A DNA stretch of 64,000 bases from Rhynchonema sp. JSB1_4 (taxonomy: Eukaryota > Nematoda > Chromadorea > Monhysterida > Xyalidae): positions 1 through 64,000 of the forward strand of contig JASAMV010008712.1 in NCBI GenBank assembly GCA_030248065.1. Reading direction: 5' to 3'. Made by a program: the position numbers and the translations under genes. Positions 14,257 through 46,386 of this stretch are shown here, one piece after another; within the stretch, counting starts at the first letter, position 1; each line of letters begins with the position of its first letter. The notes below the pieces were generated by a model. It worked only from the letters and a program-made list of their open reading frames with translations, made no database searches and had not been told where the DNA came from.

Positions 14257-14482
14257 GGGTGGAATTTTCGAAACGGTGTAAGGGTCAGTTGGGCGTAAAG
14301 GTCGGTGTAAAGTTCGGTCGAAAGCTCGGTCGGCGTAGCTCGGTGTAAACGTGAAACATTGCCTGTTATTAACGTGGAATGTTTCAAGTTTACACCGAGG
14401 TCTTTCACACTGAGCTGTCGACCGAGCTTTCCACCGACCTTTACACCCAACTGACCTTTACACCGTTTCGAAAATATCACCC
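14257..14482. mobile_element. GGGTG hairpin MITE with central TGAAACAT pair, copy 1
   Basis: A 226-bp hairpin with ends GGGTGGAATTTTCGAAACGG and CCGTTTCGAAAATATCACCC, flanked by a 3-bp duplication TCT. Inner arm sequence repeats GGTGTAAAGGTCGG phrases. At its centre lie a TGAAACAT (14352-14359) and an ATGTTTCA (14379-14386) pointing outward. Family copies lie at 37560-38154 and 42567-42779, with fragments near 30659 and 43356. Confidence 0.88.
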
Positions 14483-14689
14483 TCTGTCTTGGCGCACTCG
14501 TTGAGTGTTTGGGGTTCTGTCATTAACGCGCATGCGCCTTTCAACAGGCGGCTTAGGCTCATGCTTGCTGGTGAGCCTATGGTTAGGTTTAGGCCTACAG
14601 CTTCAACAAAACGGTAGCTATTTGCACGCGCATCAATGTGAGCAGAGCCAATCCAATCACGCAATAATGTTGTGTTGACGCTGAACTTT

Positions 14690-14975
14690 CTGAATCAGGT
14701 TCTAATATCAACTATTCGTTTGTGCGTCCCTGAGTTGCGCCCTCAATTCCATAATCACAAACGCGCGTATGCTCGGATCTTGTATGTCGTGCTCGGCTTG
14801 TTCGATCGCTTTCTGAACGCCGTGCACTCCGAGATGGTGCTGCGAAATAAAATAATAATTACTTTTTTTTTATTTTCAATGCTATTTATGTTGCTGGGTC
14901 GGTCGACCTGAGCTTTCTGAATCAGGTTCTAATATCAACTATTCGTTTGTGCGTCCCTGAGTTTCAATGCTATTT
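14690..14975. repeat. Short direct duplication
   Basis: A segment of about 52 bp, from CTTTCTGAATCAGG through GTGCGTCCCTGAGTT, occurs at 14690-14741 and again at 14911-14963. TTTCAATGCTATTTAT occurs at both junctions (about 14875 and 14962). This looks like a local tandem duplication of about 220 bp with internal divergence. Confidence 0.75.
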
Positions 14976-15288
14976 ATACAATAACAGCACTTTCGGCCTC
15001 AGATTCTCGAATCGGTCACATTTTCTCACAACCTTTCTTTGTCCTCTCTCATATCATTGTGATCAGAGCAGAAAATGTTTCCACAATGCGTTCGAGGTCC
15101 GAATGAAATTAATGCATCATTCCAGGGAATTTTCACAAGATTCGAACGCAACCAAAAATAAATTGACAAAAACGTATCCCTTTAGAGGATATATCCAAAA
15201 CCATTCGCAACCTGCGCGATTCGTTCGGCATAATCGATCCAGACACAATTCGCACACCCTGTGCCGCAACACACCGGCGTTGCATTGA
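14947..15288 (+). CDS. Candidate exon, Cys/His-rich frame
   Basis: A 113-residue open frame contains CDQSRKCFHNAFEVRMKLMH followed by a histidine/arginine-rich tail. The spacing is not a canonical C2H2 finger. The sequence could be a decayed zinc-finger exon related in style to the genes downstream, or chance. No matching splice partners were established. It lies upstream of the methyltransferase gene. Confidence 0.18.
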   Translation: MCVPEFQCYLYNNSTFGLRFSNRSHFLTTFLCPLSYHCDQSRKCFHNAFEVRMKLMHHSREFSQDSNATKNKLTKTYPFRGYIQNHSQPARFVRHNRSRHNSHTLCRNTPALH

Positions 15289-16009
15289 GAGCTGACCTTT
15301 CTTCAAGTCTGTTGGTGTCGGTCGACACTGGAATGTTATTTTATTTGTGCTGTTTTAGATTTAATAATGTTATCAAAATGTTTCAAAGTACCTGAACTCA
15401 TCGGTTTGTCAGAGTCTGACGATGCTGTTTTGTTGTTGTGTCCAGGAATTGAGCTGTGGAATTTAGTCCAACAGCAGCAATTGGTGCTGCGTCTCGATAG
15501 CAGCGCACAACGACGATGGAACAAGCTGAGCATTATGATGACTGCGATTTTTTGGCTGGTTTCGCACCGATTTGTGTGAAAAAATAACAATTTTCTTGCC
15601 GATTTCAACTGATTTTGCACACGATGTGTCTGCCCAGCAGCGAAGGCAAAGGCGCACACACAGAAGACAGTATGTCGCGCAGCGGCTGCGCTGAAACATT
15701 GCACACACACAGACTGAATGAGTCAGCAGCAGCACAAGCAAAGCGTCTGATCCCGACCCGGTAGAATGCAAACTCCGCCCACTTTGCCTGTTTAGCAAAA
15801 CGGGCCGGCCAGTTTGGCAAGACCGCACTGGCGCCTGAGCCTCAGCACGAGCATAAGCCTGAGAAACAGGGAAGTCAATTTTGAAACTGGACTTGGCTTT
15901 CCCAAAGTGCGTTCGAGAAGCCGGTTCGTTTATGGTGTGCAATTTCAAAATACAGGCTGTTGTGCAGTAACATAAAAAAAATTTGCAATTCCATTTTGCA
16001 GAGCGTCAA

Positions 16010-18246
16010 ATGTCGACGACGTATGTCCGAGATATCGACCTTTCCCTGCCTGGTGAGGACCGTTCGGTATGCCTGAGTATCCATCAGCAACACATCGGTT
16101 TGTATGATGCCGATGGCCATGTTTTCCATTGTATTTCACTGACGATGTTCTGGTGCACCGTTAATATTGACAGAAACCGGTCGCAACAAACTTTTTGACT
16201 GGAAAATTCTGCGTTTCTCAAAGTGCCGTCATCTTGTTTGTTGTCATGCCCATTGCCCATCGTTTTTGTGCTGTGCTATAGTAAATTTCCAAATTCGCTG
16301 CCACGCAGTAAAGTACGCCCCATAGTTAAGGTCAAGTTCTAAACCCGAAAACCATCTTTTGAAACATTTGGTCAACCAACCCACGCGCAGCTTGCCAGCC
16401 AGCCAGGCAGCTGCGCGCAATGTTTTAGAACCGCGCGCATGGTTAGCGTTCGGGTTTATAACTTGTACATAACGTGCCTACCATGGAATCAAAGCAGGGC
16501 ATGATAACAAGGGCATTAAAACACCAAGATTTTATTTATGCTATTGGTTTCGACTAGCTTATACAGTAAGTCCATCGAAAAAATTCGTGTGCCTGATGTT
16601 TCAATGATGGTATGCTGCACAGGTGACGTTGGCGCCGTGGTGTGGGACAGTGCGCTTGTGGCTGTGAAATATTTGGAACGCCTGTGTGCACGAGAACCGG
16701 AACGATTCATTGGATCCACGGTGCTGGAACTCGGTGCCGGAACTGGAGTGTGCGGCATTGCTATAGCTGTACTTGGGTGAGTGATGGAATTATTTTCTCA
16801 TCCTCTTTCAAACATAACGCTTGAATGCTCAAAGCGTCGTCTTGCTGCACATTATGGTGCCCTCTTGCCCGCAGTGCTTGGGCAAGATCCAAGTGGGGTG
16901 ACTACTTTGGCGGGGAGCGTGGGAAGGGGCGGTAACGAAGCATTTTCTGTCCGTGTTTTGCTTTCGAGTACCACGCATTCTCATCTACGCATGTGTACAA
17001 TGGTTGGAGCTCATGTTCAGCTTTTCTAATGCCAGGGAATCCTTCTAAATATTGTTCACCGACAGATTTGGTGGGCTGAGTGACTGATGTTTCAATAGGA
17101 CAGGCCAATCATCTAACGGCAGTGAGTTTTGTCCGTTTCGAAAAAAATCGTCAAGAAATAATAATCTCAAGCTTTTTTTTCAGCGCCCAAGACGTTTTGC
17201 TCACCGATCTTACGTCGCAAATCGATTTACTTCAACAAAATATCTCCGTCAATCGACATCTGTTCGCCGCCGAAACAACAGCTCGCGCTGCACCACTGCG
17301 TTGGGGTAATGTTTCGCAGGCGCACGGAACATTTGATGTTGTTGTTATGGTGGACTGCTTGTATTATGATCAGGTATGCATGTTTTTTACGTAGCTGTTT
17401 TTATTTTTCATCATTTTTTCGATCACACACACCATCACCATATGCATACATCGCTTGTTAGCATGACCATGATGTTGTTACTGATGCGCATTGTATGTCC
17501 CGTATAGGGTGCTGTTTCAAATAATAGGTGCGGTAAGTCATCTTCGTTATGTATAGTTTGTTGATTATATTTCCACATAGTGCATAAGCCCCATTCAGCG
17601 ATGTTTGGAGCGGGCTGGGTCGACGCCATTCTAAATGAATGTTTCAAGCATTGCCAATTCAGGCAAAGACCGATTGAACATTGCTTACTGCGTGGCGCAA
17701 AAACACGTGGCCTGTCATCGCACAGCACCAACAATGTTCAACGGCTCTTTGCCTGAATTGGCAATGCCTGAAACATTCATTTTGAATGGCGTCGACCCAG
17801 CCTGCTCCAAACATCGCTGAATGGGGCTTATGCACTATGTCGAAATATAATCAACAGACTATACAAATATGACAGTCTATCATTATCGTGATGGGCCCCT
17901 CGTATCACTACCCACAGAGAGGGCAGTATTGTCAACATTTCACTCAGAGTCTCGATCCCCTCCTAACAACGCTGCGGTCCGTGTGCAATCCCAACACCCG
18001 TGTTTATTGTGTCTACGAACAGCGTGACATCGGGCAACCAGCTGTGGTGCAGAAGAAGTTTTTCGAGGTTCGTCAGTTATATTTGCAGATTTTTAAATTT
18101 TTTTACAAACTTTTAGTGTCACGATGGATTAAATAATTTTTCAGACAGCGTCCACGTACTTTCGATTCGATGATGTTTCACTTGCCGATCAGCATCCGGA
18201 TTTTCGATCTGATGATATAAAAGTTGTTGTTCTCAGGCCATTATGA
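16010..18246 (+). CDS. METTL21D/VCP-KMT-like protein-lysine methyltransferase, complete
   Basis: A class I SAM-dependent lysine methyltransferase of the METTL21 family. The human METTL21D relative trimethylates the AAA ATPase VCP/p97. Five exons join in phase: 16010-16097, 16623-16776, 17184-17373, 17948-18067 and 18145-18246 (TGA), giving about 217 residues, close to the human length. The first exon gives MSTTYVRDIDLSLP. Then come GDVGAVVWDSALVAVKYLE (the family VVWD region) and VLELGAGTGVCGIAIAVLG, whose ELGAGTG is the SAM-binding motif I. AQDVLLTDL is motif II, FDVVVMVDCLYYDQ carries the DxxY-like motif near the active site, and VYCVYEQRDIG contains the YEQR element typical of METTL21D. 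The C-terminus, RSDDIKVVVLRPL, matches the family beta strand. Intron 1 holds a hairpin element and intron 3 another (17559-17856). Exon 5 contains one ATGTTTCA octamer. The start could lie further upstream if exon 1 continues past the TTTTGCAG at 15994-16001. Confidence 0.92.
16277..16485. mobile_element. Degenerate hairpin element in methyltransferase intron 1
   Basis: The left part (TATAGTAAATTTCCAAATTC) and the inner GGTTAGCGTTCGGGTTTATA match the more complete hairpin at 39258-39498. The right outer arm is missing. A TGAAACAT lies near the centre (about 16363). Confidence 0.7.
17559..17856. mobile_element. Hairpin MITE in methyltransferase intron 3
   Basis: A 298-bp inverted repeat with ends TGTTGATTATATTTCCACAT and ATGTCGAAATATAATCAACA and arms of about 110 bp (shared TGCATAAGCCCCATTCAGCG and GGGTCGACGCCATTC). 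The inner arms carry ATGTTTCA (17639) and TGAAACAT (17770), here converging. It is non-coding. Confidence 0.88.
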
Positions 18247-18871: not shown

Positions 18872-21800
18872 ATGTCTGTGCCAACGCCGTTGTTCTGCCA
18901 TCTGTGCGCCACACAATGTTTGTCCATCCAACATCTACGCGAACATTTGTGTGAAGCACATTTCCTATATCGACCCTACAGGTGAGTGGTGACGGTATGA
19001 ATTGCTAAAATGCGTTGTGCGCGGCTATGCGCAGCAATCACGCGATTCGACATTTATATTGGTCGCACAATGACCATATAAGAATTCATCAAATGAATCC
19101 TGATTTTCACGTTCAGTCACTCTTAACCACTGTGCTATTTGTGATTCTCACAAAACATTTTCACCTCAAAATAATCCAGCACAGCACCCACGTTGCTGCG
19201 GGTCTGAAACATTTTGAAGACAGCTTGTTTTGTGTGAGATCGCGCAACGCAACGTCACTGCCCGTCACTTTCCCTCTTTGCGATTCAGGAAAAAAATTTG
19301 ACCAATTCTTATAAAGTCATTGTGCGACCAATATCCACTGCTTGTTGGCGGAGTTTTGTACCACAAGCTCAAGTTTTTAGTGCTTATGCCTATTTGATTT
19401 TATCTATTGTGAGTTGAATGCTTCGTTTGCGCGTCACCATCGCTTGAGGTTAATCCATACCTACAGTCGTAGTGAAACACTAGACGGGACCCGTGCCTCC
19501 GGCCCGGCTACAGCGCCCGTGCCGTGCCACCACCCCCCCCCCCCCCCCCCCCGGAAGACCCGTTAGCATACCGGAAGCTACCCGTGAAAATTGACCCGTC
19601 CGCACCTCCGAGGGAGGGGGCCACAGACAGACACACATAAAGGCAGTCTACGGGAGGTTGTCACTCAGCACCCGAATACCGTAGCCCACCGCAAGCGAGA
19701 TCGTTGCGAGACCCATGCTGATCGCTGCTTATCGACACGTGTATTAGCGGCAGCAAGCTGGAAATTATCATCGTGCGCATCGATCACCAAAACGTCGAAA
19801 TGTTGGTTGGTGTTGGCGCTAACACGCAAAACATAGCTAAAAAACAAAATGGTCTCGACACGATCTTTGCAGATCAAAATTACGGTGGGTTACGGTATTC
19901 GGGGGCTGAGTGACAACCTCCCGTAGATTGCCTTTACAGTCGTAGTGAAACACAAGACGGGACCCGTGCCGTGCCACCCCCCCCCCCCCCCGAAGACCCG
20001 TTAGCATACCCGAAGCTACCCGTGAAAATTGACCCGTCCGCACCTCCGACGGAGGGGGCCACAGACAGACACACATACATACATACGTCTTCCTGTTTTA
20101 GTAGTATAGATTTCGTCGGCATTTTCCTTTGGTTTATCTTACAACGCGATGAACGCTGAGAAATGTTTCGCACGGTTGGCACGAAATATGCAAAAATTAT
20201 CCGAATAAAATTCACCAACCAGCCCATATCTATTCGGTCGTATAATGCAGATTGTTATGTGTTTTGCAGATGTTTCATGTGCGACGCAAAAGTCTCCAGC
20301 AAACGACTGATGCAGGAGCACGCGCATGAATATCATTTGGGACTGAAACCATTGGTTGGTTGAGATGTTTGTGTCTTCTGTGTTGTTGTTGTTTGGTAAT
20401 ACTAGATGGGACCCGTGCCTACGGCCCGGCTACAGCGCCGCCGCGCCCGTGCTGTGCCACCCCCCCCCCACAACACCCCCCCCCCCCCCCCCGAAGACCC
20501 GTTAGCATACCCGAAGCTACCCGTGAAAATTGACCCGTCCGCACCTCCGAGTGAGGGGGCCACAGACACACATACATACATAGGTCTTCTTCATAGTATT
20601 ATAGATTTAACATGATTGTCCTTTTAATAGTTTGGACGCGGAAAATACAACTACAAGCCAAACTGTTTGTTTGAGGTGCTGCACGAACCCGACAAGAACA
20701 TCGAAGCCAAACTGAACCTGGCCATGCACTATTTTCGTAAATATTTGGGTGTGGTCGCTGGTAGCGGATCTGATGCCACAACCCTGGACCGACGGGCAGT
20801 AACATCGAGCCCGGTGGTTAAGAATGAACCACTGGTGGATACGAGAGTAACCCGGTGTGAAACATCAACATCGGCTATTGAAACATCAACGAACATGTCT
20901 TCGATCGGCGCCGATACAGTTGGTTAGACAGTTGTTTTTGGTATTAATGTTTTCCTGTTTATGGCCCTGTGGTGCTGGTTTTCTGGGTACCGGCGCATTT
21001 TGCGCTGGGTGGTCGTTCACGCTCAAAGTTAGGGAATGGCTTGCGTCCACATTTAGGCTTAGACTCAGACGTTGGCTTCTGCTCAGGCTCAGGCCTACAT
21101 CTCGGCCAACCGCAGGCCAACCGTTAACAGCTAGCACAAACCTAAACAACCACCTGGCGCCAAATGCGCTAATATCGCTTTCTGTGAACCAGCTGTGCTC
21201 ATAAATGGAAAGCACCACTCTATTTTTGGGTTTGTTGAGCGGTCACGTCCACATGATCATAAGCTGCCAATCAGTCACAGCCACAAGCCTCTGTATTCGC
21301 ATTCCATGGTGGACAAAATAAGCGGCGTACATTTCAGACTCGTGCCCGTCGGTGAAATTGGAACCGATTGATGTGGAATTCCACGCTCCTCCGCTGCTGG
21401 TTGACCGCAGCCACATGTCGGATGCAGAACGACGCCATAATCGTGATAAATATAGCTGTTACTATTGTCGTGTCTGCGATGTCAAAGTGGCACGCAACCG
21501 CTACAAACACGAATTGTCGCACGCCCAACTACAGCAACTCTATCGCGACCACGTGATGTTTCACCATCTGAATTTGCACAAATTCACCTGTCGACTGTGC
21601 CCGGCCGGTGCGACAACGTTCAGCACTGATCGCGAGCATGACTTGGTGGGTGTGCAACATTGTAAGCTCTTTTTCTGTTTGTGTTCGTGTTTTTTGCTAA
21701 TCAGTTCTTGGATGCCTGACATCATCTTTGTTCCAGCTTTCGCACATGCAATCATCGCACGCGAGCGATGTGCACAATATGCACACATTTGAGCAACTGC

Positions 21801-24800: not shown

Positions 24801-27800
24801 TTTACTTTTTTTTAATCCAACCCTGCCCTTGTTGGGCCATTCGTCGCCTTAGGCGCACGAACCATCAGGCAGAACCTACTCTGTCAGCTTTATAAATTTC
24901 TGTTTGATCAAATTGAGTGCGCACCTGCAACATGTATGCGCAGCCAACTGCCGTTTGTCAAGACTTGCAAGTCTAACATTTTGCAGTCGACATCTAAACC
25001 AACGGAATGTGGGATGCAGTCAGACAGGACACAGTTGATGACAGGCCAACATCGCGTGCAGCCCAAAGTGCTTGTGCCCGACTTCCCCGCTGGAGCGCTC
25101 GCCTGGTGTCAGCGCGGCTGCAGGCAACCGGTGAAGCTCAACGGAAAAATAAATTTCGTCGTTCTCCGACTCAAGCTGCACGTCAAGCGGTTGGTTGCAT
25201 GTCGTTCTCCCCATCGCAACCGGGGCTAATATGGTGCAGTCGTCGAGCCAAGTCGTCAACTTTTGTCGTCAACACAAACAGCACTCAATGACTGAGCGAG
25301 AGACACTCTGCATGGGACTTGACGTTGAGAGTAGACGATCTGAGGTTGACGACAGTGACCTAAGCCCGTGACCGCAATGATTTGGTGTGATGCGTGAGCC
25401 AGTTATTAGATCATTATTATTCCGACATTCGAAGAAGGCCAGTAATTTTTTCGCAACTCTTTTATGCGCCTTTTCGATTCAAATACGGCCCGTTTAGTTG
25501 ACCAACTGGTTATACCCTGGTGCACCCACTGAGGTGCTTAAAGGGTGTGTCTAACGTCTCTTAACCCCATGTGTTATTGGGTGCAATCGAAAGATGACCT
25601 CGACAGGCCGCTGTGTGCAAAAAACCGCGTCTTCTGGCTCGTTTAATCGCGAAATATTGAGGGTTACTTTTTGAATTAAATCAATTTCCGGACACAAAAC
25701 TCCAGGCGCTTTTGGCGTTTTTCTGCTGAAACATTGCATGTTTAAGCGCGGCTCAGCCGCCTATACAATGCACGTAAACGCTCAACACACAACGCTCTGA
25801 CTGCTGGCTTGACTGTGGACACAATGAATGTTTCATTTAACCCACACAAGCTGGTTTGTGTGTGTTTCGCTTCGTAACTTTTCTTGTCTGCTCAGTCTGA
25901 ATTTTGTGTCCGGAAATTGATTTAATTCGAAAAGTAACCCTCAAGATTTCGCGATTTAGCAAGTTAGAAGTCGCGGTTTTTTGCACACTGCGGCCTTTCG
26001 AAGACATCTTTCAATTCCACCCAACAAAACATGGGGTTAGGAGACGTTAGACACACCCTTTAAGTCGATCAATATTTGTTGCAGCAATCATTGGCCGTCA
26101 CGATTTGGCAGATACGAGTGCACCGTCGAGGGCTGTGGTCGACGTTTTTTCCTACCTTCGTACATAAATGAGCATTGTCGCACTGTACATGGACGAGCTG
26201 GTGGATGTTTCATTCGAGAAATAGAAATGAACATGGACGTGGATAATTCAGAGTTGATGCGTGCCTCGCTGCGCAGATGTTTCAATGTGCGTACATGGCC
26301 CGCCGTGGTCACCGTTATTCAAATTCGCTTTTATCAATTTTTCGTGGGGTCCCGTTGAGATGACTAGCGGTTCCACGACTGTATTTGGTGTCGGATTTTC
26401 TTGTCCGTCAATTGGGGCCCGAGCAGAGGCTTACTTTCAGAGTTAGGCATAGGTTCACACTAAGTGTGTTCTCATAGGGGTGAGTGCAGCCTTCGCTAAG
26501 CCTAACCCTGAAAGTAAACCCCCTGGTCGGGCCCCAATTGACCCCGGGCCCCATATTGTAGGAGAATTGTCGGTTTTGCTGCAATGCATGTCCATTATGG
26601 TGTTGATGCTGGACAAGTCAAGCTTTCCAGTTTTTTTAGAATCTGTTTGTTTCCTCCTTCTAACGAACTCGCAATCAGCTCGTGTAGGCTTGTCGTGGAG
26701 GTGAAACATTTCATCCACTTGGTGGACGGTGATTTGTAAAGTAAATCACCGATGAATGTTTCGCACATGGGCACGAAACTAGTAGAGTGTGTTCGGTATT
26801 GCGGGTAAAGGCAAACCAGCCGAGCTTTGTAGTGCTAGGCCATACCGTATCACCCTGAATTTCAAGTCCCAGAAATGGCTAGGTATTACTGCAGCCACGC
26901 TGTGCAAGTTTGTTTGTGACGCCAGCGTGCTAAATGTTTCATGATATTGGCGCTCGAGGCGTGGCTACAGTAACCCAAACCATTTTTTGGGGCTTGAAAC
27001 TCAGGGTGATACGGTGCGGTCTATGTAGCACTGCAAAGCCAGGCTGGTTTTCCTTTAAAGGGGAAATTGCACATTCCTAATCGCCTTTCAAGTTTTACAA
27101 GCGTTTAGACAGCAATGTGGGCATCACAAAAATCAAATAATTTGGTACAAACTCTCAAACATGTACCCAGGAGATTCCATTTAAAGGGCTCGGGACATAA
27201 CCGTAGGAAGGGTAGCAGGGCATAGTGTTATACACCGTTGGAAAGCACTCTGACAGCGTATGTCGCGCACAAGCTTTAAGCTCCTTGGAGATTCGCTATC
27301 TCTTGGTGGAGCGACTTTTCGTTCCAGAAAAAAGTGAATTTTTTCACAACTTGGAAAGACCGGTGCAGAAACCACAAATCAGCTGGACGTCAAGTAACGC
27401 ATGGATACGATTACAAAAGTTTCTGGATAACTTATCATCACAACATCAGTCGCTCAAAGCATTGCTTCTCTCGGTGAGGGTGCGAAACGTTCCAAAAATC
27501 GGCCACATTTTTCGAGGGCACAAGTTTGTCCCTAAATTTCGAGGCCGCGCTTTGCGTTCCAGAAATGAAAGTGCAACACAAAAATAGAGCTTCGTCGAAA
27601 GTAGCAGAAAATAAGGTTTTTAGATTTGGAACCCCTTATGCAGCGGCGTGACAGGCCGAAAAAGACCCAAAAATTGCCCCAAAAATGTACAGTCGCATTC
27701 ATTGGCGGAAATGTGATGTAAATAGGCCACGTATTGCATCGCATTTGAAAGGAAAATGCCAGATAAACGCACAGTCCAACAACCTAGATGATTTTGAAGA

Positions 27801-29878
27801 CTTCAAACTCGATGGACCTACTGTTGCAGCCTTGCAAACCTGAATACGATATTCGGCTATAAGTCGTTTCTGTTAAGAACTATTTCACATCTGATAGCAC
27901 CAAACGATGTAGCTCTGAAATAGCTATCGAACGATATATGACATGCCCATACTATCTCATACTATGGACAAGAAACGGTCAAAATTCCGAAATCGCACAT
28001 GGTGGCGTGACGGTTCATTCCAGAATCTGCAAAAAAGCAATTTTTTCACCTGTGCTCCCAAGCGTTAGAATTTTTTGGGACTTGTCATATATCGTTCGAA
28101 AGCTACTCTGGAGATACATTCTTTGGAGCTATCACATTTGCAATAGCTATCAACAATTAGCACTTATAGCTGAATACCGTACTCAGATTACTATGGCTGC
28201 CGCGAGAGATTTGAAGACCTTGGGGTCTTCGGACCTTGATAGGTTGCTAAACCAGACTTTTCTCTCGATTTTTTGTTGCGAATGCGATACAATCTGTGGC
28301 CTTTTTGGGCCACAATTCTGGCGATAAATGTAACCATCTGGCTTAATGGTAATTCAATGGATTTTTAGGCCTGTCACGGAGCTAGCCATGAGTTTCAAAA
28401 TTTAAAAACCTTATTTTCTGGTACTTTCGACAATGCTCTATTTTCCCATTGCATTTCTATTTCTGCAGCGCAAAGCACGGCCTCAAAATTTAGGGACAAA
28501 CTTGTGTTCTCGAAAAATATGGCCGATTTTGGGAACGTTTCGCCCCCTCACCGAGTGAAGCAATGGTTTGAGCGACTGAAGTTGTGGTGACAAGTTATCC
28601 AGAAGCTGTTGTAATTATGTCCACGTGTTACGTGAACCGCAGCTCATTTGGGGTTTCTGCAGCGGTGGTTACAAGTTGTGAAAAAATTCACTTTTTTCTG
28701 GAACGAAAAGTCCCTCTACCGAGAGATAGCGAATCTTCAAGGAGCTTAAAACTTGTGTGTAACATAGGCTTTCAGAATGTTTTCCAACGGTATATACCAA
28801 TATGCCCTGCCACCCTTCCTTCGGTTATGTCCCGAGCCCTTTAAGACAAGTCACTGGGAACAAAATTCGGCGCGGACCGGCCGAATTTCTACCTGCGCAT
28901 TCAGGCTGATCAAAAGGCTGTCAAGGCGACAGAATGTTTCGCACGATTCTTGAAACTCACTAACTATAGAATTTCGCTTTTCTTTATATTTCGAATTTCG
29001 ACGAATTGTTCCAGCGTGTCTGCTAAATGTTTCATGCTCTGCTTGTCACGCTGGAACAATTCGTCGAAATTCGAAATATTAAGAAACGCGAAATTCTGTA
29101 GTTAGTGAGTTTCAAGAATCGTGCGAAACATTCTGTCGCCTTGACAGCTTTTTGATCAGGCAGTTTGCCTGAATGCGCAGGTGGAAATTCGGCCGGTCCG
29201 CGCCGAATTTTCTTCCCGATTGTTCCCTTTAAACTGCTTCTTCTGGGTACATGTTTGAGAGTTTGTACCAAGTGATTTGACTTTCATGATGCCCACACGA
29301 CTATCTAAACACTTGTAGGGTTTGAAAGGCGGTTAGGAATGTGCAATTTCCCCTTTAAGGCGCGGCCATGCAAACGCGGGCGCGAGTCGCGGGTCAGAAA
29401 AATATTCTATGCCCAAGGCCCGCCCCGCGTTTGCATGACCGCACTTACGGGTTGCGGTTTGCGGGTCACTTGAAACATTTATTTGACTGCAAACACACAA
29501 AAATGAACCAATCAGCGTCGAGCCAACGTCGCAGACGTGCCGTAGCACAGTCTGCGACCCGCGGTTGCATGGCCGCGCCCTTACGTAAAATTGATACAAA
29601 ATTGTGAGCCACACATTTCAGAGCCAATCATCTCTTGTGTGGTCCTTTTCAGATGAAGTCATGTGCCACATTAATTCATTTCTTATTTGTAGCTTGCCAA
29701 TGAATTCCAACTTTGCAACTGGACCCCACCATGTGCACCACCACAACCGATCAAATACAAACGTCAACATCCCGTCAGGAAGTCATCGATTGCGATACAT
29801 CAGCGAGCTCGTCGCATTGTCGCTAAGTACTGCTGTAAGACACGTAAGATTATGGCAATGCAAAACGGTGTGAAATAA
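18872..29878 (+). CDS. Multi-exon C2H2 zinc-finger gene ZF1
   Basis: An unrecognised C2H2 protein of about 639 residues. Eleven exons join in phase: A 18872-18981, B 20270-20354, B2 20676-20922, X 21338-21645, Y 21737-21902, Z 22655-22748, C 23171-23389, D 23860-23959, E 24987-25189, F 26085-26286 and G 29693-29878 (TAA). Fingers: A, FCHLCATQCLSIQHLREHLC; B, CFMCDAKVSSKRLMQEHAHE; X, CRVC...HELSH; X/Y, CRLC...HMQSSH across an intron; E/F, CQRGC...HVKRNH across an intron; F, CTVEGCGRRFFLPSYINEHC. B2 holds a helix-like LNLAMHYFRKYLG and a VKNEP acidic part; Z and G are basic. A nuclear DNA-binding role is inferred. Donors at B, Y and E are GTTGGT. C has only a GTGAAT donor, and its frame resumes with a long open stretch to about 23567, so that junction is the weakest. 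AATAAA overlaps the stop. ZF2 shows the same exon order and phases. Confidence 0.72.
19057..19333. mobile_element. TATTGGTCGC MITE, copy 1
   Basis: Ends TATTGGTCGCACAATGACC and GTCATTGTGCGACCAATA are inverted repeats around a 277-bp non-coding body that includes a TTTCACGTTCAGTCACTCTTA phrase and GGTCTGAAACATT. Other copies are at 42256-42532, 58384-58666 and, interrupted, about 44580-44962. It lies in intron A-B of ZF1. Confidence 0.9.
19480..20610. repeat. GGGACCCGTGCC repeat, three copies
   Basis: Copies at about 19480-19637, 19937-20112 and 20400-20610 share GGGACCCGTGCC, a long C-run, GAAGACCCGTTAGCATACC, GTGAAAATTGACCCGTCCGC and an ACACATACATAC tail. The first two flank a TA-flanked MITE (19638-19936). 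Related fragments lie near 30140-30190 and 37024-37085 in reverse orientation. The class is not determined. All lie in ZF1 introns. Confidence 0.75.
19638..19936. mobile_element. TA-flanked MITE (AAAGGCAGTC family), copy 2
   Basis: Inverted ends AAAGGCAGTCTACGGGAGG and CTCCCGTAGATTGCCTTT are flanked by TA. The body matches 9611-9909 in the opposite orientation. It is inserted between two GGGACCCGTGCC repeats. Confidence 0.88.
22265..22563. mobile_element. TA-flanked MITE (AAAGGCAGTC family), copy 3
   Basis: Starts AAAGGCGGTCTACGGGAGG and ends CCTCCCGTAGACTGCCTTT, flanked by TA, about 297 bp. It lies in the Y-Z intron of ZF1, just upstream of exon Z. Confidence 0.88.
24046..24825. mobile_element. 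hAT-like element in ZF1 intron D-E
   Basis: A 780-bp element with inverted ends CAGGGTTGGATTAAAAAA and TTTTTTTAATCCAACCCTG, flanked by an exact 8-bp duplication CCCTTGTT (24038-24045 and 24826-24833). Subterminal poly-A/poly-T tracts are extensive. No transposase is evident. Confidence 0.92.
25542..26059. mobile_element. TTAA-flanked hairpin element with empty site in paralogue
   Basis: A 518-bp inverted repeat with ends AGGGTGTGTCTAACGTCTC and GAGACGTTAGACACACCCT, flanked on both sides by TTAA (25538-25541 and 26060-26063). The paralogous site in ZF2 (about 41790-41815) reads GAGGTGCCTAAATCGATCAA with nothing inserted, giving an empty site. TTAA duplication is the piggyBac signature. The centre carries TGAAACAT (25727) and ATGTTTCA (25828) pointing outward. 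It lies 25 bp upstream of exon F. Confidence 0.9.
26408..26541. mobile_element. Short hairpin element
   Basis: Arms TCAATTGGGGCCCGAGC and GTCGGGCCCCAATTGA, followed inward by TTACTTTCAG.GTTAGGC and its complement, form a hairpin of about 134 bp in the F-G intron of ZF1. Confidence 0.75.
26806..27058. mobile_element. Hairpin element with central ATGTTTCA
   Basis: Arms share AACCAGCC.AGCTTTG.AGTGCTA and CGTATCACCCTGA.TTTCAAG in inverted form. The centre contains AAATGTTTCATG (26932). It is about 253 bp, in the F-G intron of ZF1. Confidence 0.8.
27185..28840. mobile_element. 1.66-kb TTAA-flanked foldback element, copy 1
   Basis: Starts AGGGCTCGGGACATAACCG, ends CGGTTATGTCCCGAGCCCT, and is flanked by TTAA at 27181-27184 and 28841-28844. 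The whole element is a giant inverted repeat, with two arms of about 800 bp that are clearly related but diverged from each other. The same arms in copies 30962-32623 (inverted) and 34149-35804 are nearly identical arm for arm. Open frames are short and mirrored, so no transposase is supported. Confidence 0.92.
28856..29227. mobile_element. Long hairpin with central ATGTTTCA
   Basis: Arms of about 170 bp pair from GGGAACAAAATTCGGCGCGG through CGAATTTCGACGAATTGTTC. The loop is GCTAAATGTTTCATGCTCTG (octamer about 29025). In the second duplicate (about 35815-36000) only the loop region survives recognisably. Confidence 0.85.
29355..29584. mobile_element. Hairpin element, GGCGCGGCCATGCAA ends
   Basis: Ends TAAGGCGCGGCCATGCAA and TTGCATGGCCGCGCCCTTA are inverted repeats. 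Inner arms share GCGGGTCGCAGAC-type sequence, and a TGAAACAT lies near the middle (29469). A near-identical copy at 36242-36471 belongs to the duplicated block. Confidence 0.8.
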
Positions 29879-29879
29879 A
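29874..29879 (+). terminator. AATAAA overlapping the ZF1 stop codon
   Basis: The sequence GAAATAAAG contains both the TAA stop (29876-29878) and an AATAAA. The same overlap is seen in ZF2 (43184-43189). If used, the 3' UTR would be extremely short. Confidence 0.4.
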
Positions 29880-30440: not shown

Positions 30441-30553
30441 ATGTGGTCGGCGTCTACGCCGTTGTTCTGTCATCTATGTGCCGCACCATGTTTGTCCGTC
30501 GAACATCTACGTGAACATTTGTGTCAAGCACATTTGCTGTATCAACCGTACAG
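30441..30553 (+). pseudogene. Orphan zinc-finger first exon (A-type)
   Basis: Encodes MWSASTPLFCHLCAAPCLSV and a full C2H2 finger, as in ZF1 exon A and nearly identical to ZF2 exon A (37343-37455). It ends TACAG followed by GCACGT instead of GTGAGT. No B to F exons follow before the inserted foldback element and low-complexity DNA, so it is an isolated duplicate left by the junction duplication. It could still be transcribed or spliced to ZF2. Confidence 0.65.
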
Positions 30554-30961
30554 GCACGTTTGACGGGGGGGGTGTCTTTTTTCGTTTCTTTGAAACGTGC
30601 AATGGACAGGGTGTATGCTGCATTCTTACTGATGTGACATGCAAGGTTTTGATACTTAGGGTGGCATTTTCGAAACGGTGTAAAGTTCGGTGATTCGTAG
30701 CTCGGTAGCTTCGCCGCTCAGCGCAGACGGCGTTTCGCCTTTTCTTCAAGCGTGCGTTGTTTGCATCTTCTTTCTCACGTCTTGTCTGTACCTCTTGCAG
30801 CTGTTGGATTGTCCTGCATTCCGTCAATTTTGCCCCTGACAGCATAAATCACCTCCTCGAAATTCATACATATCGTTAAACGCTGCCCCCGCCCCTTCCT
30901 GCCGTCCCCGCGCGTCTCTGCTCTCGCGCTGTTCGCTTACGCCCCCTCCACCCCTATTTAA

Positions 30962-32623: not shown

Positions 32624-32639
32624 TTAATCGCACTCCTGA

Positions 32640-34098: not shown

Positions 34099-34140
<42 letters not shown>
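32640..34140. repeat. Low-complexity C- and A-rich stretch
   Basis: Most of 32700-33570 is strongly biased to A and C, with many C-runs of 6-10, and few motifs recur. A run of nearly pure A covers 34081-34139. No gene is supported. Open frames here are composition artefacts. The abrupt composition could be real satellite-like DNA or low-quality assembly. Confidence 0.6.
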
Positions 34141-34142
<2 letters not shown>

Positions 34143-34148
34143 CGTTAA

Positions 34149-35804: not shown

Positions 35805-36579
35805 TTAAGAGATCGGGGGAAAAAAATTGGGCGGGACGAGGGCGAATTTTGCCTGGGCATTAGGGGAAAAGAAAAGGGGAAGGGGACAGAAGGATGGTCG
35901 AACGAACAACAACTAACTAAATAACTTTCTTTTCTTTTTTATGGAATTCACGAATGTTCCAGCGTGTCTCTAAATGTTCATGCTCTGCTTGTCACGCTGG
36001 AAGGATAGTAGAAATAGGAAAAAAAAGGGGAAATCAAATTAGGAGGAGAATAGAACCTAGGGCCCCTCTCCCTTTGGCAGTTCCCTGTGCGCGAGTCGCA
36101 CGAGCGGGCACGCCGGGACCGCCCCCCTCCCATTCCCCCTTGTTCCCTCCTTCTTCCCTGTCTGGTGAGATCATGATGCCCACACGACTGTCTAAACACT
36201 TGTAGCGTTTGAAAGGCGATTAGGAATGTGCAATTTCCCCTTTAAGGCGCGGCCATGCAAACGCGGGCGCGAGTCGCCGGTCAGAAAAATATTCCATGCC
36301 CAAGGCCCGCCCCGCGTTTGCATGACCGCACTTACGGGTTGCGGTTTGCGGGTCACTTGAAACATTTATTTGACTGCAAACACACAAAAATAAACCAATC
36401 AGCGTCGAGCCAACGTCGCAGACGTGCCGTAGCACAGTCTGCGACCCGCGGTTGCATGGCCGCGCCCTTACGTAAAATTGATACAAAATTGTGAGCCACA
36501 CATTTCAGAGCCAATCATCTCTTGTGTGGTCCTTTTCAGATGAAGTCATGTGCCACATTAATTCATTTCTTATTTGTAG

Positions 36580-36735
36580 CTTGCCAATGAATTCCAACTT
36601 TGCAACTGGACCCCACCATGTGCACCACCACAACCGATCAAATACAAACGTCAACATCCCGTCGGGAAGTCATCGATTGTGAAACATCAGCGAGCTCGTC
36701 GCATTGTTGCTAAGTACTGCTGTAAAGACACGTAA
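36580..36735 (+). pseudogene. Frameshifted duplicate of zinc-finger last exon (G-type)
   Basis: After a TTTGTAG acceptor the frame reads LANEFQLCNWTPPCAPPQPI, as in ZF1 exon G. An extra A near 36724 gives a premature stop after about 52 codons. ZF1 and ZF2 keep the 62-codon version. No upstream exons of the same gene copy exist, so it is debris of the junction duplication. Confidence 0.75.
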
Positions 36736-37342: not shown

Positions 37343-40300
37343 ATGTGGTCGGCATCAACGCCGTTGTTCTGCCATCTATGTGCCGCACCATGTTTGTCCG
37401 TCGAACATCTACGTGAACATTTGTGTCAAGCACATTTGCTGTATCAACCGTACAGGCACGTTTGACGGGGGGTGTCTTTTTTTCGTTTCTTTGAAACGTG
37501 CAATGGACAGGGTGTATGCTGCATTCTTACTGATGTGACATTCAAGGTTTTGATACTTAGGGTGGCATTTTCGAAACGGTGTAAAGGTCGGTGGCAAGCT
37601 CGGTGTGAGAAAGTTCAGTGTAAGCTCGGCGTAAGCTTGAAACATTGCACGCTGAGCAAGCTGCAGGCGTGCGTTTCTAAACGAAAGGTCAACTTTGAAT
37701 TTCGTTTACTACTGTGCAAGCGTAAAGCGTTTGTTTGCAATCTGGTTCATTTAAGCTGGTTGCACAAACGTCTTAAAGGAATACTTGTAAGTTACCTGAC
37801 ATTTCGCCGCAAGGCTGTTGAGAAATTGAACCTTCATTGACGGCGGTGCCAAAAATTTTGACGTCACTAACTGTTCGCAGCACAAAATCAAAACAGCTCC
37901 ATTTAACGAAATTCATACATATCGTTTAAAAACGCTTGTGTAACCAGCCTAAACAAACAATATTGCAAACAAACGCTTTACGCTTGCACAGTAAACCGTC
38001 AAAGTTGACCTTTCGTTTAGAAACGCGCGTCTGCTGCTTGCTCAGCGTGCAATGTTTCAAGCTTACGCCAAGCTTACACTAAACTTTCTCACACCGAGCT
38101 TTCCATCGACCTTTACACCCAACTGACCTTTGCACCGTTTCGAAAATATCACCCTTAGAGCCATTGCCATGGTTAGTTGACGTGCTTTTGTGTCATATAT
38201 CCCAATTTTCCAGTTTCTAAAGCCCATCTTGTTCCTTGAACGGCCGAAATGCCGAAACTAATTGGATAAAGTATAATGTTTTGAAAATATAGTCCAGCTG
38301 TCAATAACACATAAAACACTCCGAATAAAACTATTAAGTGTGTTGGTGTTCTCTTGTTCCAATGGATCGTGTTCGTGTTTTTCAGATGTACAATTTGCGA
38401 CACTAAAGCACCGACCAACCGAATGATGCAGGAGCACGTGCATGAATCGCATCTGGGATTGAGGCCACTGGTTAGCCCTGTATGTAATAATCTACGTGCT
38501 TTTCGGTCAGTTCAACCACTGCTCGTGGATGTCATTGCACGATTGTGGCACCCAAAATAAAGCCTAAAGCCAAACCACTTGTTTCAGGTGCTACACCAAC
38601 CCGACCGGAAAATCGCAGCCAATCTGAACCTGGCCATGCGCTATTTGCGCAAATATTTGAGTCTGATTGGTGGCCCCAATTCTGTTGCAACGATGAAACA
38701 ACCATCCGTATCTTCGACTGGGGGTGTCAAGGCTGAAGAACCACCTGCGGAACCGGAAGTGTCTCATTGTGAAACATCAACAACGGCCATCGAAATGGTC
38801 TGGGAAATGCCTTCACTCGCTGATGGTTAGACGGCATTTTGGAAGTCGTATTGGGCAGTGTCACTGTTTGCTGGAATACGGTGGTTAGGTTTGAAACTAA
38901 CAAAACTCACTGCTGTTACATTATTGCCTTTGACTTGGTATAAAAATGTTTTCAAATAATATACCCATCCATGAAACTTCAGCCAGCTCTCCATCAGCGT
39001 CTGTGCGTAACACGCCTGTGTGCTGTACAGCCAGTGCGCAACTGGATAGCTGATGCTTCACAATAGTGTGGATGTGGACTGAGTAAAGATATTTTATGCC
39101 AAGTCAAGTCAACTCACTCCGACCCAGGGTGCCATCAAAGTGCACGTCTGCGAATGTATTGTTTATGTCAGTGCCGCTTGTTCCAAAGTGTTTGTTTGAA
39201 TCTTGCTTAGCTTCGTTGCACCACCCACAGCAGATAACCATTAGATGGGCAACCAGCTATAGTAAATTTCCAAATTCGCTGCCGCACAGTAAAGTACGCC
39301 ACATAGTTAATGTCAAGTTATAAACCCGAACGCTAACCATGCGCGGTTCTGAAACATTGCGCGCAGCTGCCTGGCTGGATGGCAAGCTGCGTGTGAGTTG
39401 GCTGTCCGAATGTTTCACAAGTTGACTTTCGGGTTTAGAACCTGACATTAACTATGACGTGCTATAATGTGCGGCAGCGAATTTGGAAATTTACTATACC
39501 AAGTCTGTATTAGTTGCTGCAGTCCTTTGTATTCTCATTGCAAATGTAACAAAATAAGCACGAACTCCTTTCAGATGCTTTGTGGTCAACTGTAAAATTG
39601 GAGGCAACCGGCGACTCGGAGCTCCGCGATCCTCCGTCATCCGTTGACTACAGCCACACGCCGAATGTTCAACAGCCGATGTGAGCGTTGCCTCTCTTCG
39701 TCATCATCATTTTTAACCAGCTAACCTGTTTTTCGTATCATACTTACTAGAGTTTGATATTACAATCGAATCAAATAATCAGGGCAAATAATACCTAAAT
39801 GGATTGCAGGAAATTCCGGTACGATAATCGACAGCTGAGCACGTATTGCACTGGCTGCAACGCGATCGCATACCGAACGCAGTCGTTTCTCAAGTTGAGC
39901 AAACGCACACGCCGTTCTCTGCCGGTGGGACGCTCCAAATTGCTTCAATTGATTAAACACGTCAAACAGTTGAGTGGCATGCATCTGTGTAGCTGGCTGA
40001 TGTTTCATTTGTGTGTTATATCGCCCACTTGGGTTAAAATGGAATTGATCGTGTGGCACCTGGGAGCCAAGAGTTATGGGAGCCGATTCATGCGTGCTTT
40101 GTTGTGGCTGTGCTGCACTTGACAAAGTTTGGTATAACGCCTTGATAACTGGCGGGTTATCGCGCCTTTATCATTACCCGGTCGCCCAATAAGTTGGGTG
40201 GGGCATCTCAGTGTTTTTGGGGTCTGTGCGCTTCGTCTCAGTGATGTGGATCCGGAAACAAAACAAAGGGGCAGACGCCATGGGAGCCGAAACCCGCCAG

Positions 40301-43189: not shown

Positions 43190-43355
43190 GTGTTTTCTGC
43201 AAAAAGGTGCACTCTCTTTTATTCTTGTGAGCGGGTGAACTCTGTTGTGTTCTGTCAGATCACAACATTGCAACTTGCAATATTGTAGTTCTGTGTCTTG
43301 ACTTTGCTGTTTTTTTTTATTTGGTTCTGAAAATAAAAAACATTCATCGCCATTA

Positions 43356-43978
43356 TGGGTGATATTTTTGAAACGGGTAAAGGTCAGTTGGGTGTAGGGG
43401 TCGGAGGAAGGCTCGGGTGAAAAGTTTGAGTTTAAGCTACAAACAGTGCACGCTGAGCAGGCACAGGCCGCTTTTCAAAACAAAGGTCATCTTCAGCCTC
43501 TGCCGGAGAAACTCTCTTTCGCACTTTTTGGGGTGTCAGGTTTTAAAAATATAAATCGTGACCTTTTAAGCCGTTAATCCGCGGGCATTAGGGCCATTTT
43601 TTTACCGCCTCAAGATTCATTTCTCAATAGCCCACGGGGGATGTCAGGCACTAAAAAATTCCCTTTAAACCTCCAACGCAAAAACACAAACAAAATCCAC
43701 AAGCACGCAGAGTCAATCCTCTAGAAACGCGTGCTCTCCTCTCCCGCGTCATTTTCCACCCCGCCCCACCTTCCCTCCCCCGCCTCCTTCCCCCCCCCCA
43801 CCCCCCCCCCCTTCCCCTAAAAAAATCCCTATGTTGCGCACGTTGACTATGTTTATAATCCGTAGCTGTCGATTCTGGACGCAGCGCGGGCAATAGCACA
43901 GTGGTTAAGAGTGACTGAACGTGAAAATCAGGATAGATTTGATGAATTCTTATATGGTCATTGTGCGACCAATACCCA
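43356..43978. repeat. Degraded MITE fragments and C-rich tract
   Basis: A left end of the GGGTG family (GGGTGATATTTTTGAAACGG) is followed by diverged arm sequence to about 43460. A C-rich low-complexity tract covers about 43735-43815. At about 43896-43976 lies one inverted end fragment of the TATTGGTCGC MITE. No gene is seen. Confidence 0.55.
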
Positions 43979-44378
43979 AGGTTGGAAAAAAATTTTTAAA
44001 CTAGTTTTAAAAAAAAAAATTTTTTTTAAAGTCTGAGATTCGGGGAAATTTTACCAAATTTGCCTAAAAAACGCAAAAAAATGCAACTTTAATTGACAAG
44101 TCACTTTTGTGACTTAGTTTGCATCACTTATGAAGGGTGTTTACGTCATTTCGGTGCGATCCAACAGTCTGTGCTTGTTATGGACCTATGAGTGCTGCTC
44201 TGTGGTATCAGACACAACAGTTTATGGTCGAACTAGCAAGATTCCCTCATAAACCACACAGAATTGAGAATATAAGCTGTACAAATACTTGTCGGGCAGC
44301 TGAATCAGTCGTATAGGACCGATCTGATGGGGTATGACATCGAAGTACCATGTAGGTACACGCATACTGTGTCCCATG

Positions 44379-44962
44379 TATCAGTGGTTTTTTAAAAAAA
44401 AAAATTTTTTTTTTTATTAAAAAAAAATTTTTTTTTAAAAAAAAAATTCGTTCCAAAAGTTAAAAAAAAAATTTTTTTTTTTATTATTTCAAAATTCGAA
44501 AATTTCTCTATTTTTGCTATCAAAAGGGCTATTTTTTGCATAAGAATTGCTACGTTAACATCACCCGACCCTACCATGGGTGTATTGGGTGCATTTTCAC
44601 GTTCAGTGCACTCTTAACATACTGTGCACACACTCACATGGCCTCTCATAGATTACACAGTACAGGACTGGGGGGGCATGCTTTTCCTGCCAGAGCCGGA
44701 AGCATATTTGTGATTCTCACAAAACATTTTCAGTCTGTCACATATTTGCATTAATCGTGTACCAGCATAGATCCCCCACACCCCACGTTGCCGCAGTGTA
44801 CGTGTGAACATTCTGCTTTACTCATACCATGTTTTGTGTGCGAATGCACACCACACGTTATGGAAGAACAACCGCAACGTTGCCCCGTCACTTTCCCTCT
44901 TTACGATTCAGGAAAAAAAGTTGACCAATTCTTATAAAGTCATTGTGCGACCAATACCAACC
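44379..44962. mobile_element. Truncated CAGTGGT element inside a TATTGGTCGC MITE
   Basis: CAGTGGTTTTTTAAAAAAA at 44379 and the sequence to about 44590 match the reverse complement of 63485-63691. From about 44590 to 44962 the sequence follows the TATTGGTCGC MITE with small insertions, ending GTCATTGTGCGACCAATA. Both are non-coding. Confidence 0.65.
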
Positions 44963-45387
44963 TAAACTCGGACAACGTGCATTGTGAGCTCAAACACTTT
45001 TTGCGGATTAGCGGGTCTCCAATTAGCTGACCCACTAATCCGCTTTTTCAATTTCCATTGTGAATGCAAAAGCGTGCGCGAAAAGCGGGCCCGCTAATCC
45101 GCAACCCGCTAATCCGCTGCATTGTGAATGCGTCCTTACCCGTTGGTATTGTACATGTGGGCGATGTCAAACATTTGTTGGTCATTTCTGGGGAGTGCCA
45201 GAAGAAACGTTGCCGATCGTTTGTAAGTTGACTGTCAAAATTTGGATGTTTTGTTCGCTTCGGTAGAAACAGTTTTGCATCAAAAAAACGACCATAACTC
45301 AGCAACTGTTCCACACCCACGTCCAGATTCATATAAAATAGTTGCCAGTCCAGGACTCTAGTCCATGTTATATGTTGTGTTTTACAG

Positions 45388-46386
45388 ATGTTTCATGTAC
45401 GATACGAAAGCATCGAGTGAACGATTGATGCAAATGCACGGTGATTATGAGCATTTGGGATTGAAACCAGTTGTTGGTCAGGTCATAATGTTCCTTGTAC
45501 GTTGTGTTGTGCGCACATGCGTTATAATTCGGATTAAGTTCGCTCTCCGCAATCCGTTGGTGTTCAATATCAAGCCTAACGCAGTCTCTCCAATCCAACA
45601 CAAAAAGAACTACACGTTGTTTATCCCCCGTGATGTACGAACCAGAGATAGGGGCATCGAAGCCTTACTCCAGCAGGCCTTGTGTCATTTGGAGAAATAC
45701 GTGGATGTGATTGGCTCGAACCTTGCAACAACTTTGGGACAATCACCAACTACGGTGGTCAAGAGAGAACCGCTTATTGAATCAGACATGGCTCATCGTG
45801 AAACATCAGCCAGTCAGGCCGCTGGCATCGATTTGGACGAGCGACCGTCTAGGGTTGACAGTGATGGTTAGTGTGTTGCTTCAATTCTGTTCACTCGTTC
45901 GTCACGTTTCAATGGGCTGTGCGGAATATAGTCGATCCACGACTTGAGCGCCAATGTGTGCAGTCCATCACCCCAAGATCTATCTATCTAGTATTTCTGT
46001 GCGTGTGTGTTTCTGTGCCCAGTATGTTGGCGTGCATTGCACTGACGATGACCTGGTGCACCGTGCAAACAACCACAGACAGCAACCGAAGATCACAATC
46101 AAAGTGACTGCAACAAAATAATTCCCTTTTAGATGCAGTCTCCATGTCGAACCAAACGACAGTCAAATGCGAATCGATCCATGAGGAATTCTACGTTCCT
46201 CCACCCCTGGTTGAACGCAGCTCCATGCCAAATGCACCACAGGGTCAACAATCACAGAAACGGTCTTGTGACGCTCAAAAACCACCACAAGATCGTGGGC
46301 CAGGCCGTTGTGCTCTGTGCACTGTCAAAGTGGCACCCACTTACACACACGAATCGTCACAAACTAAACTAACAAATCTATCGTGA
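45388..46386 (+). pseudogene. Decayed zinc-finger gene ZF3 (B, B2, X exons)
   Basis: Exon B (45388-45472) keeps the frame CFMYDTKASSERLMQMHGDY, but the second zinc cysteine is Tyr. The B2 region (about 45632-45868) aligns with ZF1/ZF2 B2 but has lost its acceptor AG and has a two-base shift near 45650. It still shows VKREPLIESD.AHRETS and a G|GTTAGT donor. Exon X (46133-46386) begins in phase after TTTTAG and reads to a stop, with CALCTVKVAPTYTHES in place of the first X finger. No A or C-G exons were found, so it is probably a pseudogene, although B and X remain open. Confidence 0.7.

What the first reader, a model, noticed from the sequence alone, without database searches (positions are those of the whole stretch)
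14352..45806. Large cluster of ATGTTTCA octamers resembling nematode piRNA (21U-RNA) promoter motifs
Seen: about 47 exact ATGTTTCA/TGAAACAT octamers in the window (about 3 expected from base composition), about 40 within 31.5 kb, on both strands, in exons, introns, spacers and unrelated transposons. Known: C. elegans type I 21U-RNAs lie about 40 bp downstream of a motif with core CTGTTTCA, in dense clusters, and snpc-4/PRDE-1 complexes act there. Inference: this is a piRNA locus with an A at the first core position, or another dispersed-motif domain such as a meiotic pairing-centre-like array. Exonic copies would be unusual for piRNA promoters and may make this a variant system.
Basis: partly seen in the sequence, partly recalled or inferred. 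Interest (0 to 1): 0.9.

Follow-up and report, generated by a model that had tools for sequence, protein, structure and literature searches.

The report
Genome-wide half snRNA-promoter motif
The short motif seen in this window is not a local cluster but is scattered tens of thousands of times through an animal-like genome, and it matches one half of the switch that this genome uses for its own spliceosomal RNA genes, which hints at a large field of half-promoters like those of worm guide RNAs, although no sign of transcripts was found.

Summary
The octamer excess is real: 47 copies in the window against about 6 expected. It is not a local cluster: the 204 Mb genome holds 93,825 copies against 8,711 for the reversed word. 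The longer word TGATGTTTCAC occurs 17,175 times against 112 and scores highest among dispersed 11-mers in my sample.

The octamer is the 5' half of this genome's U1 promoter element (PSE, bound by SNAPc in other animals). It sits 34-37 nt before U1, one U2 and one U5 gene. The full PSE, GATGTTWCA-N5-GAWWGACT, occurs 589 times against 7. Dispersed copies lack the 3' half.

But the 21U start signature is absent, and a Piwi-clade protein was not shown. Some octamers ride on palindromic repeats, but the long form does not favour repeats (7 of 27).

Best reading: a genome-wide field of SNAPc-type half-sites whose binding and transcription are unproven. Species unknown.

The parts
14352..45806 (.). 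stretch with 40 of the window's 47 ATGTTTCA/TGAAACAT octamers; denser than the genome mean but not unique
4357..4367 (+). extended half-PSE TGATGTTTCAC
18171..18181 (+). extended half-PSE TGATGTTTCAC
20857..20867 (-). extended half-PSE TGATGTTTCAC, antisense in a coding-looking frame, invariant in 3 paralogous segments
21554..21564 (+). extended half-PSE TGATGTTTCAC inside the open frame 21322-21792
36679..36689 (-). extended half-PSE TGATGTTTCAC
38769..38779 (-). extended half-PSE TGATGTTTCAC, antisense in paralogous segment
45798..45808 (-). extended half-PSE TGATGTTTCAC, antisense in paralogous segment (open frame 45362-45871)
50170..50180 (+). extended half-PSE TGATGTTTCAC (duplicated at 56864)
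56864..56874 (+). extended half-PSE TGATGTTTCAC (duplicate of 50170)
17551..17865 (.). about 315 bp palindromic MITE-like repeat carrying two octamers (17639 +, 17769 -); about 40 copies at 92-95% identity scored out of 1,823 candidates
14257..14482 (.). palindromic repeat with octamers at 14352 (-) and 14379 (+), 27 bp apart; the same spacing recurs at 42650/42677 and in contigs C3, C4, C7, C10
37578..38119 (.). inverted repeat grouped with the same family, octamers 37638 (-) and 38052 (+)
28897..29168 (.). inverted repeat whose 28 bp loop holds the octamer at 29027

Best explanation
ATGTTTCA, most strongly as (GC)TGATGTTTCAC, is the 5' half of this genome's snRNA promoter element (PSE), and it exists as tens of thousands of dispersed half-sites. 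Most likely mechanism: SNAPc, or a SNAPc-derived germline complex with a Myb-type SNPC-4 subunit, recognises the half-site. This would be analogous to nematode Ruby-motif loci, which keep only one half of a SNAPc motif. Some copies were multiplied by palindromic transposons that carry them. Shown: genome-wide over-representation, identity with the U1/U2/U5 PSE half, hundreds of full PSE-like elements, absence of the 3' half at the sampled dispersed sites. Inferred: SNAPc binding at dispersed sites. Open: whether they are transcribed at all.
For: 93,825 copies against 8,711 for the reversed word; TGATGTTTCAC 17,175 against 112. Scored by presence in 2 kb chunks against an order-3 Markov model, the top three 9-mers, top two 10-mers and top two 11-mers are pieces of CTGATGTTTCAC; among 8-mers ATGTTTCA is second. 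Of 8 fetched U1 loci (10 matches) 6 have the exact octamer 34-35 nt upstream and 2 have the same PSE about 276 bp further away. Of 8 fetched U5 loci 1 has the octamer and 7 GATGTTACA at the same place; of 8 fetched U2 loci (9 matches) 1 has the octamer, 1 ATGTTTTA, 5 GATGTGACA or GACGTGACA, 1 not located. Extended context GCTGATG stands before the core in 3 of 8 U5 and 4 of 8 U6 loci; dispersed sites with G at -1 have T at -2 in 33 of 43. Full PSE pattern: 589 matches against 7; about 65 of the roughly 100 listed are the TTTC form, with varied spacers (hand count). The long form is not concentrated in repeats: 7 of 27 against 40% of bases. Nematode precedent: PMC6436959.
Against: No binding, small-RNA or transcript data. 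No initiator, T or GC signal at the expected place. At the 3'-half position no site outside the snRNA PSEs reaches 7 of 8 bases. Six of the seven octamer PSEs at normal distance from U1 or U5 genes have T at -1, while dispersed sites prefer A or G (71 of 80), so the match is to the general half, not to the U1 copy. ATGTTACA, the main U5 form, is only slightly enriched among dispersed words (15 against 9.8). An AATGTTTCA class without the extended context exists (28 of 80).
Confidence: 0.55

Rival explanations
1. The octamer is a cis-signal of transposons (for transposition or for their germline expression), shared by many unrelated palindromic families and selected at the level of the elements; its likeness to the PSE is secondary or is how it works (recruiting a germline factor).
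For: 137 of 216 octamers lie in repeats against 40-41% of positions, and 83 of 216 within inverted repeats against 13%. Between diverged copies (flank divergence 19%) the octamer is intact in 83% against 18-45% expected, while between young copies (2.6%) it decays at the neutral rate, 84.5% against 81-90% (L020 left out). One-mismatch variants are few beyond expectation (446 against 424), as for young copies.
Against: The repeat excess leans on L020: without it 100 of 179 against 39%, and in the 19 other random stretches 23 of 59 against 34%. TGATGTTTCAC is not enriched in repeats (7 of 27). Counted by family the conservation is modest: 12 of 15 families above flank identity (p = 0.035), but 10 of 15 and p = 0.93 against the stricter null; one set of control words also kept 67% intact in a class of 6 queries. 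A 1.66 kb palindromic element with three copies at 27181-35808 has none. All repeat calls see only a 0.18% sample of the genome.
Confidence: 0.2
2. The sites are active piRNA-type promoters, each making a short capped RNA that starts about 35-38 nt downstream.
For: GTTTC core and snRNA-promoter origin as for nematode piRNA motifs; spacing in the snRNA genes (34-37 nt) resembles the about 40 bp given in the finding; copy number of the strong form (17,175) is near the >15,000 loci given for C. elegans (abstract start of PMC7917550); many PIWI-domain loci (54 fragments).
Against: No T, YRNT or GC-profile signal at the expected place in 126 or 71 nonredundant sites; sites in coding-looking frames and transposons on both strands; Piwi_N domain not found, although that search had no positive control.
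Confidence: 0.18
3. Binding site of another sequence-specific factor (for example a zinc-finger protein, a meiotic pairing or replication factor), with chance resemblance to the PSE.
For: Near-exact 9-11 bp requirement; A or G at -1 differs from the usual U1 PSE.
Against: Coincidence with the PSE half, including the extended context of some U5 and U6 PSEs, is unlikely; genome-wide spread argues against a chromosome-region array.
Confidence: 0.12

Closest known systems
Nematode Ruby-motif (type I) piRNA promoters
   Same: GTTTC-containing core, derived from a SNAPc motif, only one half kept, more than ten thousand copies; spacing to the start (as seen in snRNA genes here) resembles the about 40 bp of the finding
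   Different: Genome-wide rather than in two megabase clusters as in C. elegans, partner half lies 3' of the core here (in Plectus the extra motif is 5', PMC6436959), core starts ATG not CTG, no YRNT signature, copies in coding-looking frames and transposons, no small RNA evidence
Plectus piRNA and snRNA promoters with full bipartite SNAPc motif (PMC6436959)
   Same: Bipartite SNAPc-type element; 589 full PSE-like matches here against 36 snRNA matches of U1, U2, U5 and U6
   Different: The dispersed majority here has one half only; targets of the full PSEs unidentified
snRNA PSE bound by SNAPc
   Same: Octamer is the PSE 5' half in U1, one U2 and one U5 gene
   Different: Sampled dispersed copies have no 3' half
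Transposon-spread transcription-factor sites and MITEs
   Same: Some octamers lie inside palindromic repeats of many copies
   Different: The word is shared by many unrelated families and by unmatched contexts; the long form is not enriched in repeats

Membership tests
C. elegans-type Ruby-motif piRNA promoter | Core motif CTGTTTCA (as given in the finding) | tested here: not met
   CTGTTTCA 25 seen, 20.5 expected; ATGTTTCA 143 against 23
C. elegans-type Ruby-motif piRNA promoter | Initiator YRNT / 5' U at fixed spacing | tested here: not met
   flat in 126 and 71 nonredundant sites; a minority of active sites is not excluded
C. elegans-type Ruby-motif piRNA promoter | Clustering in large domains, or location in introns of active genes as in Pristionchus | tested here: inconclusive
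   genome-wide with uneven density; genes not annotated
C. elegans-type Ruby-motif piRNA promoter | Piwi-clade Argonaute (PRG-1) | tested here: inconclusive
   54 PIWI-domain fragments, Piwi_N none but no control rang
C. elegans-type Ruby-motif piRNA promoter | 21U-RNAs and capped precursors | not testable with these tools
   no RNA data
C. elegans-type Ruby-motif piRNA promoter | PRDE-1/TOFU factors | not tested
   not searched
SNAPc-type snRNA PSE | Octamer occupies the PSE position of this genome's snRNA genes | tested here: met
   34-37 nt upstream of 6 of 8 fetched U1, 1 of 8 U2 (L026), 1 of 8 U5 (L045)
SNAPc-type snRNA PSE | Complete bipartite element at dispersed sites | tested here: not met
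   mean 2.73 of 8 at the 3' half against 2.60 in controls, 80 sites
SNAPc-type snRNA PSE | Bound by SNAPc | not testable with these tools
   needs ChIP or in vitro binding
Transposon-borne motif | Located in repeats more than expected | tested here: inconclusive
   octamer 137 of 216 against 40%, but 23 of 59 against 34% in 19 random stretches; TGATGTTTCAC 7 of 27
Transposon-borne motif | More conserved than flanks between family copies | tested here: inconclusive
   strong by pair, modest by family
Meiotic pairing-centre array | Array confined to one chromosome region | tested here: not met
   octamers in 18 of 20 contigs sampled; factor not tested

The most novel reading that the evidence does not exclude
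A genome in which no SL1 leader was found has about 17,000 SNAPc half-site promoters embedded in coding frames, spacers and transposons, which make short guide RNAs: an ancestral or independent form of the Ruby-motif piRNA system that uses the other side of the PSE.
Probability: 0.17. Interest if true: 0.88.

Novelty: new variant of a known kind. Interest (0 to 1): 0.6.

Why it matters
Nematode piRNA promoters are thought to have arisen by co-opting half of an snRNA promoter. A genome full of half-PSEs, with hundreds of full ones beyond the snRNA genes found, would show either that this co-option happened more widely or earlier, or that a basal small-RNA promoter half can be spread through a genome for another purpose. 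Both can be tested with one small-RNA library and one SNAPc ChIP.

Tried and rejected
Rejected: chance or base composition (Markov 143 against 23); one satellite or one repeat family (80 groups of contexts at E 1e-3; 27 in the window); local cluster. CTGTTTCA-type core not enriched. YRNT/T/GC tests negative at the expected offset; isolated peaks elsewhere (A at +72 in 43 of 84; YRNT at offset 20 in 27% of 33) are unexplained and may be chance among many positions. SL1 not found at up to 2 mismatches (the 22-mer is recalled). Species not identified: a cadherin-like query found no homologues; Pfam gave one sub-threshold match on ten window frames and one, cadherin just under its cut-off, on ten sample frames; searches by assembly size and for hairworm genomes did not settle it. 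Pairwise conservation of the octamer looked overwhelming but became modest when counted by family. Enrichment in repeats was rechecked without L020 and weakened; I lowered the transposon rival from 0.25 to 0.2 for that. No paper reporting this dispersed motif came up in searches (20 of 1,070 listed; 12 of 57 listed; 14 of 14) and 93, judged from listings.
Full report
Observation. The window holds 47 exact ATGTTTCA/TGAAACAT (25 and 22), against 5.97 +/- 2.41 in 100 shuffles, largest 13. 40 lie in 14352-45806. The preceding base is A or G in all 47. In the 20 sampled 10 kb stretches it is A or G in 88 of 96.

Not a local cluster. The window belongs to a 203.9 Mb assembly of 5,747 contigs. It contains 93,825 octamers against 8,711 of the reversed word. 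Nineteen sampled 10 kb stretches hold 0 to 12 copies; the twentieth (L020) holds 37 because it is mostly a 9.5 kb palindromic element with tandem subrepeats. The window stretch is 2.8 times the genome mean, and its 47 copies collapse to 27 contexts. Density is uneven, but this place is not special.

What the motif is. After grouping contexts that match each other, 80 groups of 209 sites remain: -1 is G 43, A 28, T 6, C 3; where it is G, -2 is T in 33 of 43 and +8 is C in 18 of 43. The extended word TGATGTTTCAC occurs 17,175 times against 112 reversed. Scored by presence in 191 chunks of my 339 kb sample (L020 and the snRNA cores left out), the top three 9-mers, top two 10-mers and top two 11-mers are pieces of CTGATGTTTCAC; ATGTTTCA is second among 8-mers. 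Homopolymer C runs are in more chunks but with lower scores. The 24 one-mismatch variants together are hardly in excess (446 against 424; 410 against 402 without L020), with ATGTTTCG (2.6-fold) and ACGTTTCA (1.9-fold) as exceptions. Genome-wide, up to one mismatch, there are 418,770 against 224,041 for the reversed word, whose exact expectation is about half.

Link to the snRNA promoter. U2, U6, U1 and U5 were located by Rfam models (9, 9, 10 and 8 matches, 8 loci fetched of each). In six of eight fetched U1 loci the PSE reads ATGTTTCA-N5-GAA(T/C)GAC, with the octamer 34-35 nt before the start; in L040 and L044 the same PSE is displaced by about 276 bp. One U2 (L026) and one U5 (L045) have the octamer 37 and 36 nt before the start; the other seven U5 have GATGTTACAC-N4-GATAGACT or GAATGACT; five U2 have GATGTGACAG or GACGTGACAG, one has ATGTTTTA and in one (L028) I did not locate the element; four of the eight U6 loci (two full-length, two truncated genes) have GATGCTACAG followed by a TATA-like box. 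GCTGATG precedes the core in 3 of 8 U5 and these 4 U6 loci, as in the dispersed consensus. The full pattern GATGTTWCA-N5-GAWWGACT with up to one mismatch occurs 589 times against 7 reversed; of the roughly 100 exact places listed, about 65 are the TTTC form by hand count, with varied spacers, and five coincide with U1 or U5 genes found above. Since the four models gave 36 matches in all, most full PSE-like elements have targets that I did not identify; some may be copies in repeats.

Dispersed sites are half-sites. At the 3'-half position the 80 group representatives match 2.73 of 8 bases against 2.60 at control offsets; among all 209 sites only ten, all at snRNA PSEs (two of them the displaced ones), have at least 7 of 8.

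No transcription signature. Neither T, YR, YRNT nor GC content shows a peak where a start would be (126 sites; 71 sites and the TG class of 33). A minority of active sites would not be seen at this sample size.

Repeats. 137 of 216 octamers lie in repeats detected inside my sample against 40-41% of positions, and 83 of 216 within inverted repeats against 13%. This leans on L020: without it the figures are 100 of 179 against 39%, and 46 of 179 against 11%; in the 19 other random stretches alone 23 of 59 against 34%, and 16 of 59 against 11%. The long form TGATGTTTCAC is in repeats in only 7 of 27 cases. So some octamers ride on palindromic elements, but the strong form does not favour them; the sample is 0.18% of the genome, so repeat calls are incomplete. 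A 315 bp palindrome at 17551-17865 has about 40 scored copies at 92-95%. Octamer pairs 27 bp apart recur in other contigs. By pairs the octamer is strongly conserved between diverged copies but neutral between young ones, which would mean selection on elements rather than on each site. By family the effect is only modest (12 of 15, p = 0.035; 10 of 15, p = 0.93 against the stricter null), though the control words do worse (13 of 34 and 7 of 26). L020 was left out.

Coding-looking copies. Three paralogous segments (20200, 38320, 45320) align at 63% mean identity, and the antisense of TGATGTTTCAC is the longest invariant run (11 bases), reading Glu-Thr-Ser in the open frame. This is suggestive of DNA-level conservation but could be protein-level. 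The octamer at 20270 is kept at 45388 but not in the third segment. The frames look C2H2-like by eye; Pfam was silent.

Argonautes. 54 PIWI-domain fragments on 17 contigs have E up to 0.001. The Piwi-clade N-terminal family gave nothing, but no control rang, so absence is not shown. Sequences could not be fetched.

Comparison with what is known. PMC6436959 (sections 8 and 9 and passages read) shows that the Ruby motif is ancient, was probably co-opted from the half of a SNAPc motif holding GTTTC, that Plectus piRNAs have an additional 5' motif like the SNAPc motif, and that 297 C. elegans 21U sites have SNPC-4 motifs. PMC11262695 and PMC7884074 (passages) describe the USTC complex at the Ruby motif and SNAPc at the PSE. 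The present case shares origin and core, and in the snRNA genes a similar spacing, but differs in the side on which the partner half lies, in genome-wide spread, in copies inside coding-looking frames and transposons, and in lacking the start signature. It looks like a half-PSE; membership among piRNA promoters is not established.

Verdict. A real, very strong, genome-wide motif that equals half of the organism's snRNA PSE. The piRNA reading is a lead worth one sequencing experiment; the local-cluster reading is wrong.

Noticed in passing
G000, one search places: 589 full PSE-like elements against 36 matches of U1, U2, U5 and U6 suggest many unidentified SNAPc-type small-RNA genes.
   Followed up: partly
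L040 and L044: About 276 bp element with ends ATTGGTCGCACAAT / ATTGTGCGACCAAT between the PSE and the U1 gene; one of these ends also stands near 44884-44961 in the window.
   Followed up: no
L020:1-9516: 9.5 kb palindromic element with 130-147 bp tandem subrepeats; the stretch holds 37 octamers.
   Followed up: partly
window 27181-35808: Three copies (one inverted) of a 1.66 kb palindromic element, arms 97-98% alike, without any octamer.
   Followed up: no
window 2-1404: 50 bp tandem repeat in two blocks (2-133, 557-1404).
   Followed up: no
window 47090-47172: tRNA-Gly (TCC), 83 bases long.
   Followed up: no
window 49013-50180 and 55707-56874: Similar duplicated segments 6.7 kb apart, each with an octamer pair.
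   Followed up: no
G000: Argonaute (PIWI-domain) genes appear numerous: fragments on 17 contigs.
   Followed up: partly
sample loci: TACCGTAA/TTACGGTA is another widely dispersed over-represented octamer (35 of 191 chunks, 4.9 expected), first by score among 8-mers.
   Followed up: no
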